Source of the DNA: Fluviicola chungangensis
Lineage (GTDB): Bacteria; Bacteroidota; Bacteroidia; Flavobacteriales_D; Crocinitomicaceae
Direction: 5' to 3'
Length of the DNA: 64,000 bases
Assembly: GCF_007558725.1 (NCBI RefSeq)
Contig: NZ_VLPL01000001.1
Coordinates: 187,984 to 251,983, forward strand
The notes beneath the pieces are model-generated. The model was not told the DNA's origin. It worked only from the letters and a program-made list of their open reading frames with translations, and did no database searches. The position numbers and the translations under genes are program-made. Shown here piece by piece: positions 1 to 5,707 of the stretch. How positions within the stretch are numbered: position 1 is the first letter of the stretch; every line of letters starts with the position of its first letter.

Positions 1-304
1 TATATTTGGCAAGAATTTGCTCACTTTCCCATGCAAGTTCATTCCAATTGTCTTTAAATTCGTTCCAGACTTCCTCCTCTCCTTTTGCTCCCTGACTCAA
101 ACCCGAAACATTTCTTGCTTTCAAGTCTGGATCAAGCCTTGCAAAATTGGCTAGTTTCATAGCAATCGATCCGTTACTTCTCCCCATAATTTGAGCTAAT
201 TCCTTCACAGGTGGATAATTTGCATTAATCTTAGTGAATGGAATCTTACAATAAAGGTTGAACGCAACGATATGTTCGTCTCTTGACCAATTATTTTTCG
301 CCAT
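1..304 (-). CDS. HNH-type restriction endonuclease, N-terminal part (cut by window edge)
   Basis: Translating the minus strand from the ATG at 304 gives an open frame of 101 codons running off the left edge. It begins MAKNNWSRDEHIVAFNLYC, contains KELAQIMGRSNGSIAMKL and then NFARLDPDLKARNVSG. This is the N-terminal signature I associate with COG3440-type predicted restriction endonucleases, which carry an HNH nuclease domain further downstream. That nuclease domain lies outside the window, so catalysis cannot be checked. The start codon lies inside the 3' end of the upstream receiver-like gene (14-bp overlap), so this is the sixth and last visible gene of the overlapping minus-strand operon. 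Inferred role: the DNA-cleaving component of the methylase operon. Family assignment is from memory of the N-terminal pattern only. Confidence 0.7.
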   Translation of the reverse strand, partial: MAKNNWSRDEHIVAFNLYCKIPFTKINANYPPVKELAQIMGRSNGSIAMKLANFARLDPDLKARNVSGLSQGAKGEEEVWNEFKDNWNELAWESEQILAKY

Positions 305-1439
305 TCGCTTCTTGAATTCTTATATGCTCAATTGTTTCTTCTTTGCTCCAAGGGTTGATACCTGTTCTGAAAAAATATGATCCGAATTTCCCAAGTATTT
401 CATTTGTAAGTTCATCACTTAATGAAATTATACGTTCGTAATCAGCTGTTAAACTTGTTTTTGGAACCATTTTGTATGCGGAAAGAATTACTTTCCCACC
501 TCCAAATAGAGCTGAAGGAGGTAAATAGCGATCATATCCTGCTATTTCTGGTTTATCTGTTAAAGCATAACCTATCTTGTCTTTTTCAGTTCTATTAGCA
601 ATTTCCTTAGGAAATTCGTTGGGCAAAATTTTACAAACTAATAATTCGTCTAATGATTTACTTGCAACATTGCAACGTGGAGTGAGAATCAATAACAACT
701 CAGATTTGTCTTTTTTTTCTAAAATGTCTCCTGTCCAGAATTCAAATGAATTGATACGCTGAATATAGTGCTCAATTGGATTCAGAAATTCAGGTTTTAT
801 TTTCCCATTTTCGTCGGTCTCAGGTTCTAATAAGGTTGAAAGAAGTGATCTGATCGCAATTCGCTTAAAAACCTTTTGAACACGGTCTATATTCGTTCCG
901 GTTGAATTAATACCCGAAATTAGTTGTCTAATTTGTTCACCGGTAAAAAATTGTTTTGTGAAAGCCAAGTTAAGATCCTTGTGTAATTCAGTTTCTAATA
1001 TTCCTTTTGGACAAAACACGTCAATGAACCCTGAACTTAATAGCATTTCGAACGGATCAATAACTTTTTCTTTAAAATCTTCAGCCTTGTCGATCTTATA
1101 GATTGTCCCACTGTTATTGAATCTATCTTCAATTAGATGAATGCTTGCACTGAAAATGAAAATTGGTATGTTGTAGGATTGAAATGCAACCTCAATTTCG
1201 TTTAAAAATTCAGCATCCCCCTCAACTAACTCCTGAGCACCTGCAGTTTTGCCAACTAAATCAAATATCACAGCTTTTAAACTGCCGTCATTGATTGCCT
1301 GTTCTATTTCAGACTTGAAACTGGTTTGATTATCAATTGTAATATAATTAATGTCCGATATTACTTGTTCAAAGAGTCTTTTGCTATCATCTAATATTTT
1401 TTGATCACTGTCAATGTGAATAATAGTCCCTCTATTCAT
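291..1439 (-). CDS. Response-regulator-like protein: receiver-like domain plus unknown C-terminal region
   Basis: 382 residues if started at the ATG at 1439, which overlaps the stop of the upstream ATPase gene (TATGAATAG). The longer open frame reaching 1580 would run deep into that gene and is less likely. Residues 1-125 look like a CheY-type receiver: beta-1 followed by acidic residues (HIDSD, D10/D12), a candidate phospho-acceptor D60 in VIFDLVG, a Ser pair at the Thr/Ser position (FIFSAS, 97-99) and a Lys at about 115 (IYKIDK). The remaining ~250 residues are not recognised; they are mixed alpha/beta and lack an obvious DNA-binding HTH. Because the upstream protein carries a histidine-kinase-like module, this is probably its phosphorylation or docking partner (inference). 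It could instead be a degenerate receiver that only senses the ATPase state. Confidence 0.65.
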   Translation of the reverse strand: MNRGTIIHIDSDQKILDDSKRLFEQVISDINYITIDNQTSFKSEIEQAINDGSLKAVIFDLVGKTAGAQELVEGDAEFLNEIEVAFQSYNIPIFIFSASIHLIEDRFNNSGTIYKIDKAEDFKEKVIDPFEMLLSSGFIDVFCPKGILETELHKDLNLAFTKQFFTGEQIRQLISGINSTGTNIDRVQKVFKRIAIRSLLSTLLEPETDENGKIKPEFLNPIEHYIQRINSFEFWTGDILEKKDKSELLLILTPRCNVASKSLDELLVCKILPNEFPKEIANRTEKDKIGYALTDKPEIAGYDRYLPPSALFGGGKVILSAYKMVPKTSLTADYERIISLSDELTNEILGKFGSYFFRTGINPWSKEETIEHIRIQEANGEK

Positions 1440-3849
1440 AGTTAGATTTTTTGATAATAAATGCTGGTCCGTCGGATCTGTTTTCCGCTTTAATTTTCCA
1501 ATTATTTCGACTAAGAATACTTTGCGTAAAGGCCAAACCAAGCCCCGTAGCATTTTTTTCAGAACGTGTCGTAACTCCATAATTGAAAATATGTTCGATT
1601 AAGTCTTCATTAATAAATGGTCCCGAGTTGCTAATTACAAAGGCGTTTTGCTCCATAAATAGTTTAATTTCGCCCGGTCTTTCTGATTTTTTAAGCCAGT
1701 AGACAGCGTTGTTTATGATATTCAGGAATGTAATCCAGAAAGCATATTCAAGATCATTAACAACATAATCCTTTAGTCGTTCATCTGCAGTAATCGAAAT
1801 CCTATGCTCTTCCATGTCTGATTTGTACAGGTTACAAACCTTTAAAAACGTATTATACGGAATGAAGTTCTTTTTTCTGGTTCTTCCAATTGCAGGTTGT
1901 AAAGAGCCACGTAATTCGACAAGAACATCAGTCGCTTGATGAAGTGAGTTTACGTCCGATATAAAAATGTCCCGTACTGCTTCATTTATTTTATCTTTTT
2001 TTAGATCAAGTGAGGATTTTGTGGTTCGAAGACGTGAGATAGGTTGAGCCATTTCATGATAAACTAGTTCAATACCACTTCCCAATGACGCTAATCGTTC
2101 CGAAAAAGAAAGGGATTCTTCAATGTTGTCCATCGCAGTCGTAACTTCCTTCATGAATTTTTCTGAATAACTAAGAAGTCTGCTGTCAGCGTTATATTCA
2201 TTAAGCATTCGAAGATATTCTTCAAAATCTGGTCTGTCGTGTTTACTAGTTGGAACTCGCCCTAGACCGTGTAGTAAACGATAATTATATCTTCTTTTTC
2301 CTAGAACGGAAAAAATATTTTTCAATGTTGATTTGACCTGGCTGAAAGCACTATTCTCCAGAAACCCTTCTCTATTTGTTTTCTCTTCTAAAGCATCATT
2401 TTCCGGGGAGTAAAAAAATACATATCCTAAGATTTGATTTGTATTCACATTCTGTCCGGGATTTTGAACTCTTGCTTTTGATAATTCAATCCAGTCTTCT
2501 ACTTCTTCACCATAAGGCTTTACACCAAAGCCGTTCTTTGAAATTCGGAGTCCCTGAAAATTCTTGAATACTCTTCGGAATTGTGAACCAGTTGAAAGAT
2601 TAATTTTTCCTGCAAGTTTTTCAAGATTATCCTTTTCACCTATATCATAAATCCGGATATCAAAATAATATTCTCCGGTCTTGGTTCTTTTATCGTCAAA
2701 TAGCTTCAGTTGAGGATCTTCATCGTTATCCAGATCTTTTTTTAGAATAGTGAATTCTGTTTCAAATGGATCATTATCGAGTCTGTTAAAAGCCATTAAT
2801 CCATTGACATCCCCTTCATTTGTCACTTTTCCGTAGACACGGTAGTCAAAGACTGATTGAACTGGAATCGGTTCAATTGGCAACCATTCGATTCCAGTTT
2901 GTTCAGGTATTAGGTTCGTTGCGAATTCAATAGCGAAATTGTTGGTTTTGGACGCAACAGCTTTTTTTTCTTTAATAATTCCCTTTTTGAAAAGCTCTTC
3001 CTGTATTTGATCATTAAGAGTTAAAGGGGTTATTAAGGTTGCAAGTGACTTATAAAATTCAGTGGTTTTATATGGTTCAATTGGAGTTTCAGAAGTTTCT
3101 GTTTGAGTAAACTCATCTCTTAAAATTTTCAGTATTGAATCGTCCAATGATTCGATGACAATAAGCGTACCCTTTGAAAACGATTCCAGTTCTGCTGATT
3201 GAAGAAATCGGATAACACCATTTTTGTTTCTATTCACAATGTGATTAAGAATTTCTTCTGTTTTCGATTCTTTATCCTTCGGCTGATATGCTCTCAGTTT
3301 TTTTTGTAATTCGAATTGATTTCTTTCTTGGAGAATATCGTTATCAATAAATAATGAGATGAAATTTGAAATCTGATCCCCTGGAAAATTTATTTCCGAT
3401 AGTAGTTTTTCTTCTCTAAATGCTTCACGATTAACTGTAATCCAGTTATAATCATCGGTGTCATTTTTTCGTGTAATTACATTGACACTTTCACCTAAGG
3501 CCATTGAAGCAAGACGTCCAATTCCTTTACTTCCTAAAAAATTCCGCTTAAACTTTTCACTTTTTGTATTTACTGATCTTTTAGAACTGACGGAAGGCTT
3601 TAACCAATCACCAAAAAGTGTAGGAGAATCCATTCCATTTCCATCGTCGAAAATTACAGCAAAAGCCTCTTCCGGAATATCTGAATAGTGAAAGTAAACT
3701 TTGCTTGAAAGCGCATCGGCATCATACCCGTTCTTTACCAATTCATTTATTGCGGTACTCGGGTGGCCAATTAACTCCTCGCCCATTTGAATAATGGACA
3801 TAGCACCTGGTTGGAAAGAATGTCGCTTTATCTTATTTTTTTCTCCCAT
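1432..3849 (-). CDS. Dual-ATPase protein: N-terminal HSP90/MORC-like GHKL ATPase and C-terminal histidine-kinase-like module
   Basis: 805 residues. The N-terminus carries the full GHKL (Bergerat) ATP-binding set of the HSP90/MutL/MORC branch: N-box NELVKNGYDAD (E36, N40), FDDGNGMD (residues 67-74) and the glycine lid GSKGIGR (106-112). A long middle region (about 130-560) is not recognised. The C-terminus (about 580-805) resembles a sensor kinase: an H-box YHEMAQP (candidate phospho-His near 598), an N-box NIINNA (about 711-716), a G1-like ISNSGPF, an F-box-like IFNYGVTT and a G2 box TGLGLA. The start overlaps the methylase 3' end by 17 bp and the stop overlaps the receiver-like gene by 8 bp, so translation is probably coupled. 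GHKL ATPases of the MutL/MORC type are known partners of restriction-modification systems; a fused kinase module plus a separate receiver is the odd part. Domain calls are by motif reading. Confidence 0.8.
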   Translation of the reverse strand: MGEKNKIKRHSFQPGAMSIIQMGEELIGHPSTAINELVKNGYDADALSSKVYFHYSDIPEEAFAVIFDDGNGMDSPTLFGDWLKPSVSSKRSVNTKSEKFKRNFLGSKGIGRLASMALGESVNVITRKNDTDDYNWITVNREAFREEKLLSEINFPGDQISNFISLFIDNDILQERNQFELQKKLRAYQPKDKESKTEEILNHIVNRNKNGVIRFLQSAELESFSKGTLIVIESLDDSILKILRDEFTQTETSETPIEPYKTTEFYKSLATLITPLTLNDQIQEELFKKGIIKEKKAVASKTNNFAIEFATNLIPEQTGIEWLPIEPIPVQSVFDYRVYGKVTNEGDVNGLMAFNRLDNDPFETEFTILKKDLDNDEDPQLKLFDDKRTKTGEYYFDIRIYDIGEKDNLEKLAGKINLSTGSQFRRVFKNFQGLRISKNGFGVKPYGEEVEDWIELSKARVQNPGQNVNTNQILGYVFFYSPENDALEEKTNREGFLENSAFSQVKSTLKNIFSVLGKRRYNYRLLHGLGRVPTSKHDRPDFEEYLRMLNEYNADSRLLSYSEKFMKEVTTAMDNIEESLSFSERLASLGSGIELVYHEMAQPISRLRTTKSSLDLKKDKINEAVRDIFISDVNSLHQATDVLVELRGSLQPAIGRTRKKNFIPYNTFLKVCNLYKSDMEEHRISITADERLKDYVVNDLEYAFWITFLNIINNAVYWLKKSERPGEIKLFMEQNAFVISNSGPFINEDLIEHIFNYGVTTRSEKNATGLGLAFTQSILSRNNWKIKAENRSDGPAFIIKKSNYE

Positions 3850-5074
3850 TTAAAGTTTTTTTGATCTTATCAGCAATTTTTTTTGCCATCAACGGAGGAA
3901 CCGCATTTCCGATTTGTTTGTACGCAGCAGTCCTCGGTTGATCTTCTTTAATGCCCTCGAAATAATAATTGTCCGGAAATGATTGTATTCTTGCCGCTTC
4001 CCTAACAGAAATAGACCTTAATTGCTTCACATCGGGGTGAATAAAGTGATGCCCGTCTTTTGCAATATGGGCAATCATGGTGTGAGGCTCCTCTCCTACT
4101 ACTTTGAATCTGTCAAGGAAGTCCGTAACGTTTTTTTGGGTTCTTAGATGTTCCGGTATCAGATTGTTTTTCAATCGTTCACCATTCTCCAGTTTATCAA
4201 TCGCTAGTTTGTAGATCTCAAGGTCCTTAACATTGTGAGGCCTCGTTATATGCTGTGTGACAATATCAAGACCATTTCTTATTTTGCTCTGAAATAGGTA
4301 ATCATTAGTCTCACTTTTATATGACTGAACCCTTTTTGTTTCTCCTGGGTGAATAGATGGCAGATCAGAAAATATAGTGTCTCTGAAATGCCTGATTTTT
4401 TCTTGGCTGAATTCAGGGTAAGAGAAGTTAAACTCTTTTTGCCATCCTATGATAATTATCCTCTGCCTGTTTTGGATCACTCCGAAATCATAGGCATTTA
4501 ATAACCTTGCTTCAAGTTCGTAGCCAAGACGTTTATAATAGCTTTTCAAGTTTGAAAAATACTGCCCGTTAGCGGCAGATAGCATTCCGGGAACGTTTTC
4601 AAAGACGAATAATTTTGGCTGATATTTTTTTAAAAAACGCCCGTACTGAACATACAATTTCGTCCGTTCGTCATTTTCTTTGTGCTTTAACGGGGCTCTT
4701 CCAACCACCGAATAAGCCTGACATGGAGGTCCACCAATAATGACATCGACTTTTTTTTCCTTCAGGATTTTATCAATGCTATCAAAAATCAATGAGTTGT
4801 CTCTCCCAATCTCTGCATTAATAACTGTGTTCAGTAATTCTTTCGGTATCGCATTATAAAGCTGTTCTCTTTTGATTTCACCTTTTAGATACGAATAGTA
4901 TATCTCCAAATTACCCGACTTTGCTAAGTAATGATATGCAACTCTTGTTTTTAAAGTATAGCAAGCCGCTTTATCATATTCGACATGAGCAACAGGTTCA
5001 TACCCTTGTTCATAAAACCCTTCTGATAAACCGCCGGCTCCTGCAAATAGATCGATATATCTAAGTTTACTCAT
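3833..5074 (-). CDS. DNA (cytosine-5-)-methyltransferase
   Basis: 413 residues, a usual length for a type II m5C methylase. Visible motifs in order: motif I DLFAGAGG (SAM binding, from D8), motif IV GGPPCQAYS with catalytic Cys118, motif VI FENVPG (about 158-163), motif VIII QNRQRIIIIG, motif IX SVREAARIQSFP and motif X QIGNAVPP. It therefore transfers a methyl group from SAM to C5 of cytosine in a DNA target that cannot be predicted here; the target recognition domain lies between motifs VIII and IX. It overlaps vsr upstream (8 bp) and the dual-ATPase gene downstream (17 bp). A methylase next to Vsr and nucleases is the classical layout of an m5C restriction-modification locus. Confidence 0.95.
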   Translation of the reverse strand: MSKLRYIDLFAGAGGLSEGFYEQGYEPVAHVEYDKAACYTLKTRVAYHYLAKSGNLEIYYSYLKGEIKREQLYNAIPKELLNTVINAEIGRDNSLIFDSIDKILKEKKVDVIIGGPPCQAYSVVGRAPLKHKENDERTKLYVQYGRFLKKYQPKLFVFENVPGMLSAANGQYFSNLKSYYKRLGYELEARLLNAYDFGVIQNRQRIIIIGWQKEFNFSYPEFSQEKIRHFRDTIFSDLPSIHPGETKRVQSYKSETNDYLFQSKIRNGLDIVTQHITRPHNVKDLEIYKLAIDKLENGERLKNNLIPEHLRTQKNVTDFLDRFKVVGEEPHTMIAHIAKDGHHFIHPDVKQLRSISVREAARIQSFPDNYYFEGIKEDQPRTAAYKQIGNAVPPLMAKKIADKIKKTLNGRKK

Positions 5075-5489
5075 TTATTTTTAACTTGTTAACCAATTGC
5101 TCCAAAGTGTGAATTCGTTTATCTGGCTTTAATTCACATTCCCAAACGACAATTGTATTCCATTGATTTTCATTTAGTTGAATAGTGTTTCTTTTGTCCC
5201 GCTCTTTATTTGCATTTATCTTATTCATCCACCACTCATTTCTGGTTTTGGGAGGAACAAAATATTTGCACCCTTCGTGACCGTGCCAATAGCAGCCATG
5301 TATGAAAATGACTGTTTTTAGCTTTGGAAAGATCAAATCAGGTTTTCCAGGCATTTTTTTATCGTGAAGCCTATATCGGAATCCTCTGCTAAACAAAAAC
5401 TTTCTCACCAACATTTCTGGTTTTGTGTCTTTGCTTCTGATTTGACTCATATTGTAACTCCGGGTTTCTTTGGAGTGAACATCTGACAT
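5067..5489 (-). CDS. vsr: Very short patch repair (Vsr-like) endonuclease
   Basis: 140 residues. It shows the family hallmarks: an N-terminal RSYNMSQIRSKDTKPE segment, GKPDLIFP, FIHGCYWHGHEGC and the NEWWMNKINAN helix with a following R-D pair. The key positions coincide in number with the E. coli enzyme as I recall it: E25, D51, H64 and H69 (catalysis, metal), and C66/H71/C74 as probable zinc ligands. Vsr nicks 5' of the T in T:G mismatches left by deamination of 5-methylcytosine, limiting mutation caused by the partner methylase just downstream. ATG at 5489 shares a base with the stop of the HTH gene, indicating coupled translation. Some relatives act as restriction nucleases, which cannot be excluded here. 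Confidence 0.95.
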   Translation of the reverse strand: MSDVHSKETRSYNMSQIRSKDTKPEMLVRKFLFSRGFRYRLHDKKMPGKPDLIFPKLKTVIFIHGCYWHGHEGCKYFVPPKTRNEWWMNKINANKERDKRNTIQLNENQWNTIVVWECELKPDKRIHTLEQLVNKLKINE

Positions 5490-5707
5490 TATTCCATTCG
5501 TATTTTCAAATTTTTACACACTTCTTTCAATACTTCACACGGTTCAACATCAATCGCCAAAGCAATCAAATACAATTCGTCTGCCCTCAATTTAGTGCTG
5601 GCATTGTTTGTTAATTCACTCAAACGTGTTTTACTAATTCCAGTCTTTCGGGAAACGTCTGAACGATTCACGGATTTTTTTGAAAGAAACAATCCTAATT
5701 CGGTCAT
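5489..5707 (-). CDS. XRE-family helix-turn-helix regulator
   Basis: 72 residues, essentially one HTH_XRE/Cro domain: SKKSVNRSDVSRKTGISKTRLSELTN is the helix-turn-helix, followed by LRADELYLIALAID and a short helical tail. It is the first gene of the overlapping operon and probably acts like the controller (C) proteins of restriction-modification systems, setting the timing of methylase and nuclease expression (inference). A 9-bp inverted repeat, TTTATCCGA/TCGGATAAA, in the divergent upstream region is a candidate operator. The stop codon overlaps the vsr start by one base. Confidence 0.85.
   Translation of the reverse strand: MTELGLFLSKKSVNRSDVSRKTGISKTRLSELTNNASTKLRADELYLIALAIDVEPCEVLKEVCKNLKIRME

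What the first reader, a model, noticed from the sequence alone, without database searches (positions are those of the whole stretch)
1..5707. Overlapping m5C methylase operon with a built-in ATPase/receiver signalling pair: candidate novel defence system
Six minus-strand genes overlap at every junction seen (1 to 17 bp): XRE regulator, Vsr, C5-cytosine methylase, dual GHKL protein, receiver-like protein, HNH-type endonuclease. MutL/MORC-like GHKL ATPases beside methylases and Vsr are known restriction-modification partners (for example the mza-type MutL systems). I do not know of a described system that pairs such an ATPase with a histidine-kinase module and a separate receiver protein. The arrangement suggests that target sensing could be relayed by phosphorylation to license the nuclease.
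Basis: partly seen in the sequence, partly recalled or inferred. Interest (0 to 1): 0.85.

Follow-up and report, generated by a model that had tools for sequence, protein, structure and literature searches.

The report
Restriction operon with a built-in phosphorelay
A bacterial gene cluster that marks its own DNA with a methyl group also carries a matched sensor kinase and switch protein that may decide when its DNA-cutting enzyme acts; the general arrangement was described from genomes in 2021, and this cluster belongs to a different, deep branch of it.

Summary
Six minus-strand genes overlap by 1-17 bp: XRE regulator, Vsr, C5-cytosine methylase, an 805-aa protein with two GHKL domains, a receiver protein and an HNH_2 nuclease that continues past the window edge. 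Modelled structures make the 805-aa protein a MORC-type ATPase (Z 21) joined to a histidine-kinase core, with His598 at the place of the HK853 phosphoacceptor. Of 82 non-redundant relatives, 76 have a methylase candidate within five genes (38 C5, 38 N6/N4-type by motif); Vsr occurs only with C5 (15 of 38 against 0 of 38). In the 38 C5 loci, kinase and receiver distances correlate at 0.89, kinase and methylase at 0.31. One HNH family directly follows the short receiver in 15 of 19 loci. The closest relative has phosphorothioation-type genes directly upstream and no C5 methylase in the stretch held. So kinase and receiver look like a stable restriction half with exchangeable modification halves. 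The kind is not new: Bellieny-Rabelo et al. 2021 (PMC8011034) described such pairs linked to C5 and N6/N4 methylases, Vsr and HNH_2. The window proteins match neither of their Pfam models and lie outside the clade that does. Phosphotransfer, restriction and phage defence are untested.

The parts
5489..5707 (-). XRE/Cro-type regulator, 72 aa, first gene of the operon
   Evidence: HTH_26 E 7e-9; 1 bp overlap with vsr
5067..5489 (-). Vsr mismatch endonuclease, 140 aa
   Evidence: PF03852 1.6e-34; TIGR00632 148.7 bits over cut-off 97.85
3833..5074 (-). C5-cytosine DNA methyltransferase, 413 aa; motifs PPCQ 116, ENV 159, QNRQR 201, GNAVPP 389 present
   Evidence: PF00145 1.5e-66; TIGR00675 193 bits over cut-off 100.65; motifs
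1432..3849 (-). MORC-type GHKL ATPase (about residues 8-530) joined to a histidine-kinase core (about 556-805), 805 aa, presumed phosphoacceptor His598
   Evidence: Pfam; AlphaFold2 model pLDDT 80.2; MORC3 5ix2 Z 21.1, ThkA and HK853 Z about 18-20; H598 conserved
291..1439 (-). Receiver (REC) domain, residues 1-136 with Asp60, plus C-terminal domain with Cys256; 382 aa from the inner Met (longest ORF 291-1580)
   Evidence: model, VIA-align Z about 13 to response-regulator receivers; conservation
2..304 (-). N-terminal 101 aa of the HNH_2 endonuclease; the complete gene is 257 aa and continues beyond the window (L003:11515-12288)
   Evidence: PF13391 4.4e-13 on the full protein; PADLOC HNH PDLC04132 6e-29 on the window part

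Best explanation
The operon is a C5 restriction-modification system whose cutting half is controlled by its own phosphorelay. The methylase marks host DNA with 5-methylcytosine and Vsr repairs the T:G mismatches that deaminated 5mC leaves (both from family knowledge). The 805-aa protein is proposed to clamp or scan DNA with its N-terminal MORC-type ATPase and, on finding unmodified target DNA, to autophosphorylate His598 through its second GHKL domain. The phosphate passes to Asp60 of the receiver, and the phosphorylated receiver activates or recruits the HNH_2 nuclease encoded by the next, overlapping gene. Shown here: gene set, overlaps, modelled folds, intact key residues, kinase-receiver co-divergence, recurrent linkage to modification genes. 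Inferred: DNA sensing, phosphotransfer, direction of the switch, nuclease activation, and defence.
For: Modification linkage: 76 of 82 loci with a methylase candidate within 5 genes, 38 C5 and 38 N6/N4-type by motif; C5 rate 36 of 385 genes within 3 genes of the kinase against 4 of 679 further out, N-type motif 44 of 385 against 8 of 679; PF00145 matches 38 of the 76 candidates. Vsr only with C5, 15 of 38 against 0 of 38 and 0 of 6 without methylase. Kinase core: rows start 593, 594, 596, 597 on HK853 255, 256, 258, 259, a constant offset that puts H598 on residue 260; H in 92 of 95. Receiver fold Z 13, D60 67 of 68. Distance correlation in 38 C5 loci 0.89 kinase-receiver against 0.31 kinase-methylase. 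Nuclease coupling: one HNH family directly after the short receiver in 15 of 17 loci (two of these gave the profile), within five genes in 0 of the other 67; in the window an HNH_2 gene overlaps the receiver gene by 14 bp. N-terminal GHKL has a weak match to the BbrUII/HgiDII restriction-enzyme family (4.8e-15, 55 bits against a cut-off of 550) and to PADLOC REase_II (PDLC03419 in 42 of 53). The locus is variable cargo: a sibling genome holds about 31 kb of other genes between the same two flanking genes.
Against: None of the 67 other loci has the short-receiver HNH family within five genes, and some show no nuclease by annotation, e.g. Campylobacter plasmids, so a separate nuclease is not universal. 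Four short-receiver loci lack that HNH gene: L069 and L086 and L133 and L134, which have a C5 methylase. The receiver acid pair is D10-S11 rather than two acids. His598 is not aligned as His in 3 of 95 (two gaps, one Leu). The C-terminal half of the receiver model is of low confidence and its function is unknown. The kinase-methylase correlation, though weaker, also exceeds all permutations. No phosphotransfer, cleavage or phage data exist here.
Confidence: 0.52

Rival explanations
1. The receiver's own C-terminal domain (Gly237, Cys256, Gly360 invariant) is the effector, or an adaptor for DNA or protein, and phosphorylation switches it; the HNH gene is an accessory in this lineage.
For: The C-terminal domain is conserved in long receivers (Gly237, Cys256, Gly360 in 25 of 25 of A3; E19, Y21, G33, P50, C52, Y151, R154, G156 in 11 of 11 of A8), while a nuclease gene is often not apparent; 15 of 19 short receivers come with an HNH gene instead.
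Against: No known family for that domain: no Pfam hit to it in the tally, single PDB profile hit at E 1.1; a Cys motif of this kind was found by regex in 42 of 81 receivers only; the window has Cys-Asn where most of those have Cys-Asp.
Confidence: 0.3
2. The kinase and receiver regulate expression or stability of the methylase and nuclease in response to a cellular signal, in the direction the 2021 authors speculate, and do not take part in cutting.
For: Two-component anatomy is intact in the models; the operon also has an XRE regulator; PMC8011034 proposes signalling cascades controlling R-M.
Against: No known DNA-binding output domain was found in the receiver (structure comparison covers residues 1-141 only); the N-terminal module is a MORC-type ATPase instead of a usual sensor domain; short receivers of 260 aa or less leave little room for an output domain and mostly sit beside an HNH gene.
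Confidence: 0.15
3. The histidine-kinase core is used as a second ATPase or dimerisation module and the receiver as a structural partner, without phosphotransfer.
For: Receiver acid pair altered in the window; three of 95 relatives lack an aligned His.
Against: H598 in 92 of 95 and D60 in 67 of 68, in kinases 18-27% identical to the window's; N710, N714, G769 and G771 in 95 of 95.
Confidence: 0.1

Closest known systems
HEF_HK / Response_reg_2 two-component-like pairs (PF19191, PF19192; Bellieny-Rabelo et al. 2021, PMC8011034)
   Same: HATPase_c_3 + DHp + HATPase_c kinase next to a receiver-like protein; linked to C5 methylases, Vsr and HNH_2, with N6/N4 methylases also in the neighbour network (abstract, introduction, results and discussion read).
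   Different: Window proteins give no PF19191 or PF19192 hit at E 1 or better; the kinase lies outside the clade that holds the PF19191-positive proteins tested, L029, L030 and L070. Phosphorothioation terms do not occur in that paper's main text.
MORC and paraMORC ATPases in restriction-modification systems (Iyer et al. 2008, PMC2292703)
   Same: GHKL+S5 ATPase in operons with C5 methylase, Vsr and HNH genes (passages read); model matches MORC3 and SMCHD1.
   Different: The words receiver, response regulator and two-component do not occur in that paper's main text; here a histidine-kinase core and a receiver are added.
Shedu with GHKL domain (VcSduA, PMC12137116)
   Same: N-terminal GHKL ATPase that is needed for phage defence (passages read).
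   Different: VcSduA carries a DUF4263 nuclease in the same chain; the window protein has no DUF4263 hit.
Detocs (recalled; only a table entry seen)
   Same: Recalled as a phage-defence system built on a two-component relay.
   Different: Recalled as having a PNP effector and no DNA methylase; not compared by sequence here.
DefensePredictor candidate with HATPase and REC (PMC13092281, Fig. 6F legend)
   Same: The legend lists HATPase and REC among predicted, unvalidated defence systems.
   Different: Only legends are held; whether the two belong to one candidate, or a methylase with them, could not be seen.

Membership tests
HEF_HK / Response_reg_2 pair | PF19191 match in the kinase | tested here: not met
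   hmmscan of the window kinase, none at E 1 or better; 3 of 53 proteins scanned match
HEF_HK / Response_reg_2 pair | PF19192 match in the receiver | tested here: not met
   none at E 1 or better, no match in the own genome; 5 of 68 proteins scanned match
HEF_HK / Response_reg_2 pair | HATPase_c_3 + DHp with His + HATPase_c architecture and adjacent receiver-like gene | tested here: met
HEF_HK / Response_reg_2 pair | neighbouring C5 methylase, Vsr, HNH_2 | tested here: met
Type II restriction-modification | DNA methyltransferase with its catalytic motifs | tested here: met
   PF00145 1.5e-66, motifs
Type II restriction-modification | endonuclease that cuts the same sequence when unmethylated | not testable with these tools
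   HNH_2 gene present; specificity unknown
Two-component system | kinase core with phosphoacceptor His, N and G boxes | tested here: met
Two-component system | receiver fold with phosphoacceptor Asp | tested here: met
Two-component system | paired acidic residues after beta 1 of the receiver | tested here: inconclusive
   D10-S11-D12 in the window
Two-component system | His to Asp phosphotransfer | not testable with these tools
   needs biochemistry
MORC/paraMORC ATPase | GHKL plus S5 module | tested here: met
   fold of the model: residues 8-526 on MORC3 5ix2, Z 21.1, rmsd 3.6 over 323 residues
MORC/paraMORC ATPase | assignment to MORC or paraMORC1-5 by their family motifs | not tested
   profiles of those families not at hand
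Shedu (VcSduA type) | DUF4263 nuclease domain | tested here: not met
   no such Pfam hit in the window proteins or the full nuclease
mza-type MutL system (recalled gene set) | Z1 and AIPR partner genes | tested here: not met
   no such Pfam hit in the operon
Detocs | its kinase, transfer and effector proteins | not tested
   no sequence comparison made

The most novel reading that the evidence does not exclude
A chemistry-independent restriction half: a co-diverging MORC-kinase and receiver pair that senses the absence of a self mark and switches on a nuclease, combined in different lineages with 5mC, N6/N4-methyl or phosphorothioate marking. The window and its sister L112 would be one such exchange, between C5 methylation and phosphorothioation (or N6 methylation, since L112 has both kinds of gene nearby).
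Probability: 0.33. Interest if true: 0.8.

Novelty: new variant of a known kind. Interest (0 to 1): 0.55.

Why it matters
If right, His-Asp phosphotransfer would be a licensing step for DNA cleavage by a restriction system, and one sensing and cutting module would serve several kinds of DNA mark. That gives direct, cheap tests (H598 and D60 mutants) for a kind of gene pair described from genomes in 2021, for which our searches listed no experimental study.

Tried and rejected
Membership in the published Pfam families was tested and not met. The idea of a one-off gene jumble was rejected because the order recurs. A search of 395 phylum genomes with the window receiver alone found only the own genome, so the receiver sequence itself is rare; the linkage evidence comes from the wider kinase family. 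The viral scan with the single kinase confirmed no relative; the alignment scan confirmed 97, of which 80 were kept.

The receiver's C-terminal domain could not be identified: no Pfam family, one PDB profile hit at E 1.1, low-confidence model; the structure comparison spans residues 1-141 only. PADLOC PDC-M60B matched 2 of 68 receivers weakly (best 8.4e-4) and was not followed. A regex for HNH motifs found 1 of 78 and was replaced by a profile iterated from L131 and L132. In the first tally L133 and L134, both with a short receiver, were left out; they lack that HNH gene, so the full count is 15 of 19. Pfam on the second gene downstream gave HNH in 12 and HNH_2 in 2 of 78. A strict C5 regex under-counted and was replaced by phmmer with the window methylase. 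The N6/N4 calls rest on a motif; Pfam matched Eco57I in 21, N6_Mtase in 21 and N6_N4_Mtase in 12 of 76, overlapping, the union is not known.

Rows dropped before counts: four truncated viral loci (L090, L099, L105, L106), L031 (no kinase), and L004-L006 and L009-L012 (same places as longer stretches) before the 95; copies at 70% identity or more before the 82. Six near-copies were left out of the 68 receivers (67 of 73 viral ones plus the window), and 53 kinases (52 of 76 viral ones plus the window) were scanned. Three of the 95 kinases had no same-strand next gene: two at a contig end (L037, L092), one (L035) without. In the tree 5 of 93 rows had no class label; the class of L131, L132 and L140 was set by hand and then borne out by motif and similarity; L112 was labelled phosphorothioation-type although N6-type methylases lie within five genes. 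Counting L112 as N-type gives 8 changes, three phosphorothioation rows 9.

In this mended version Best explanation went from 0.55 to 0.52 and the section on the most novel reading from 0.35 to 0.33 because of the short receivers without HNH and the N6-type genes at L112.
Full report
What is there. Six minus-strand genes run from 5707 to beyond the left edge of the window. The junctions overlap by 1, 8, 17, 8 and 14 bp when the receiver is read from its inner Met at 1439, near where most related receivers begin. The nuclease continues outside the window and is 257 aa long in the genome stretch L003. Families: HTH_26, Vsr, PF00145 methylase, HATPase_c_3 plus HATPase_c in one 805-aa protein, and HNH_2. 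The receiver has no Pfam hit over a cut-off and no NCBIfam hit.

What the two unusual proteins are. The 805-aa model (53-row alignment, mean pLDDT 80.2) has an N-terminal part, residues 8-526, that matches the MORC3 ATPase module (Z 21.1, rmsd 3.6, 323 residues); SMCHD1 (Z 20.2) and Hsp90 chains (Z up to about 20) are about tied with it. Its C-terminal part matches histidine kinases such as ThkA and HK853 (Z about 18-20). HK853 rows start at model residues 593, 594, 596 and 597 on HK853 residues 255, 256, 258 and 259; this constant offset puts His598 on residue 260, and titles name H260A as an HK853 mutant (that His260 is the phosphoacceptor is recalled). His598 is His in 92 of 95 relatives by profile alignment (two gaps, one Leu) and in 53 of 53 by MAFFT. 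The receiver model (25-row alignment, mean pLDDT 66.8) has a five-strand receiver fold in residues 1-136 that matches response-regulator receivers at Z about 13. Asp60 is Asp in 67 of 68. The acid pair reads D10-S11, with D12 next to it. The C-terminal domain of long receivers has an invariant Cys in the 25 aligned, though a Cys motif was found by regex in 42 of 81 receivers; the domain is unidentified.

Is the set conserved? Of 95 near-complete kinases, 92 are followed by a same-strand gene taken as the receiver. In 82 non-redundant loci, 38 have a C5 methylase within five genes, 38 a candidate N6/N4 methylase by motif, and 6 none; PF00145 matches 38 of the 76 candidates. The C5 rate is 36 of 385 genes within three genes of the kinase and 4 of 679 beyond; for the N-type motif 44 of 385 and 8 of 679. 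Vsr occurs within five genes in 15 loci, all of them C5 loci. The window order Vsr-methylase-kinase-receiver recurs in L138 and in Hymenobacter L016.

Which parts belong together. In 38 C5 loci, pairwise distances of kinase and receiver correlate at 0.89 and those of kinase and methylase at 0.31; none of 1000 permutations reached either value. Distances this large are near saturation, so the contrast counts more than the numbers. On a quick tree of 93 kinases (SH-aLRT support only), the class changes at least 7 times between C5 and N-type, 8 if L112 is counted as N-type and 9 with phosphorothioation-type rows as a third class; the shuffled mean is about 30, and well-supported branches force at least 5. 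A short receiver (260 aa or less) is directly followed by one HNH family in 15 of 17 loci of the first tally, two of which gave the profile; the other 67 loci of that tally (66 with a longer next gene, one without a receiver) do not have it within five genes. Two more short-receiver loci from the same genus, L133 and L134, lack it, which makes 15 of 19. The own genome carries a second system of the short kind on contig 5: methylase (48% identical to the candidate of L023), HNH, short receiver, kinase.

The nearest relative. The one genome-contig scan, with the receiver, found L112, a Bacteroidales metagenome-assembled genome. Its kinase is 47% identical over 661 columns and pairs with the window's on a long branch (SH-aLRT 100). 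Upstream on the same strand are DUF4007 (5.6e-71), a 1075-aa protein with a KAP NTPase match just under its cut-off, and a PAPS-reductase domain protein (8.5e-7) whose gene ends 6 bp before the kinase gene; two Eco57I-type N6 methylases lie on the other strand within five genes, so the modifying partner is not certain. DUF4007 and PAPS reductase are parts of phosphorothioation-dependent systems (Type-4 BREX and Ssp; passages of PMC12839542). Ensifer L021 and viral L110 also have a PAPS-reductase gene beside the pair, on the opposite strand. Whether any of these makes phosphorothioate DNA is not known.

Where it sits. In the sibling genome G009 the same two flanking genes (77% and 85% identical proteins) enclose about 31 kb of other genes; in the own genome they are 8.7 kb apart with the operon between. 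In G007 gene order differs, and the stretch between two homologues of flanking genes holds two C5-methylase-like genes and a gene with partial similarity to the window nuclease (25% over 106 residues), among others. The site is variable, as expected for exchangeable cargo; this is context, not proof of defence.

What is known. Bellieny-Rabelo et al. 2021 (PMC8011034; [quoted passage not shown] Iyer et al. 2008 (PMC2292703; passages) described MORC and paraMORC ATPases in R-M operons with Vsr and HNH. A title search listed two later papers that hold the 2021 title (listing only), and searches for its terms, for kinase plus regulator plus phage-defence terms, and for defence-island terms listed no experimental study of the pair (listings, with passages of some papers). 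The held library lacks most subscription papers and bioRxiv preprints. The DefensePredictor paper names HATPase and REC in a figure legend of unvalidated candidates.

Verdict. It is a new variant of a published kind: the window proteins do not match the two published profiles, and the kinase lies outside the clade that holds the PF19191-positive proteins L029, L030 and L070. The most likely mechanism is a phosphorelay that licenses the nuclease half of a C5 restriction system; the relay, the trigger and the defence role are inferred.

Noticed in passing
L131 (G000:C5), 314-5617: The same genome carries a second kinase/receiver system with an N6-type methylase candidate, a 209-aa HNH-family gene and a short 219-aa receiver.
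   Followed up: partly
L032:6828-10238 (also L034, L037): Kinases with long N-terminal extensions; that of L032 has a weak EcoRII-N match (3.3e-4, below Pfam's cut-off), hinting at a fused restriction-enzyme module.
   Followed up: partly
alignment A5: One of 53 kinases matches PADLOC Avs2 models (best 6.9e-26); which member and why was not traced.
   Followed up: no
L112:1454-10149: Kinase and receiver directly downstream of DUF4007, a large ATPase-like protein and a PAPS-reductase protein.
   Followed up: partly
L142-L143 (G009:C9, about 108-139 kb): Orthologous site in a sibling genome filled with about 31 kb of other genes, including a recombinase-like protein by eye.
   Followed up: partly
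L133:5939-10472 and L134:6570-11680: Two same-genus loci with C5 methylase, kinase and short receiver whose next gene (217 and 221 aa) is not of the HNH family and was not identified.
   Followed up: no
L002:1477-1698: A second XRE regulator similar to the operon's first gene (71% DNA identity over 146 bp) elsewhere in the genome; no methylase noticed by eye in the 3.1 kb read.
   Followed up: partly
receiver C-terminal domain, window 294-827: Conserved domain with motif PxExYI, TGDI, TPxC[DN], RxG; found in 10 of 395 phylum genomes and without a known family.
   Followed up: partly
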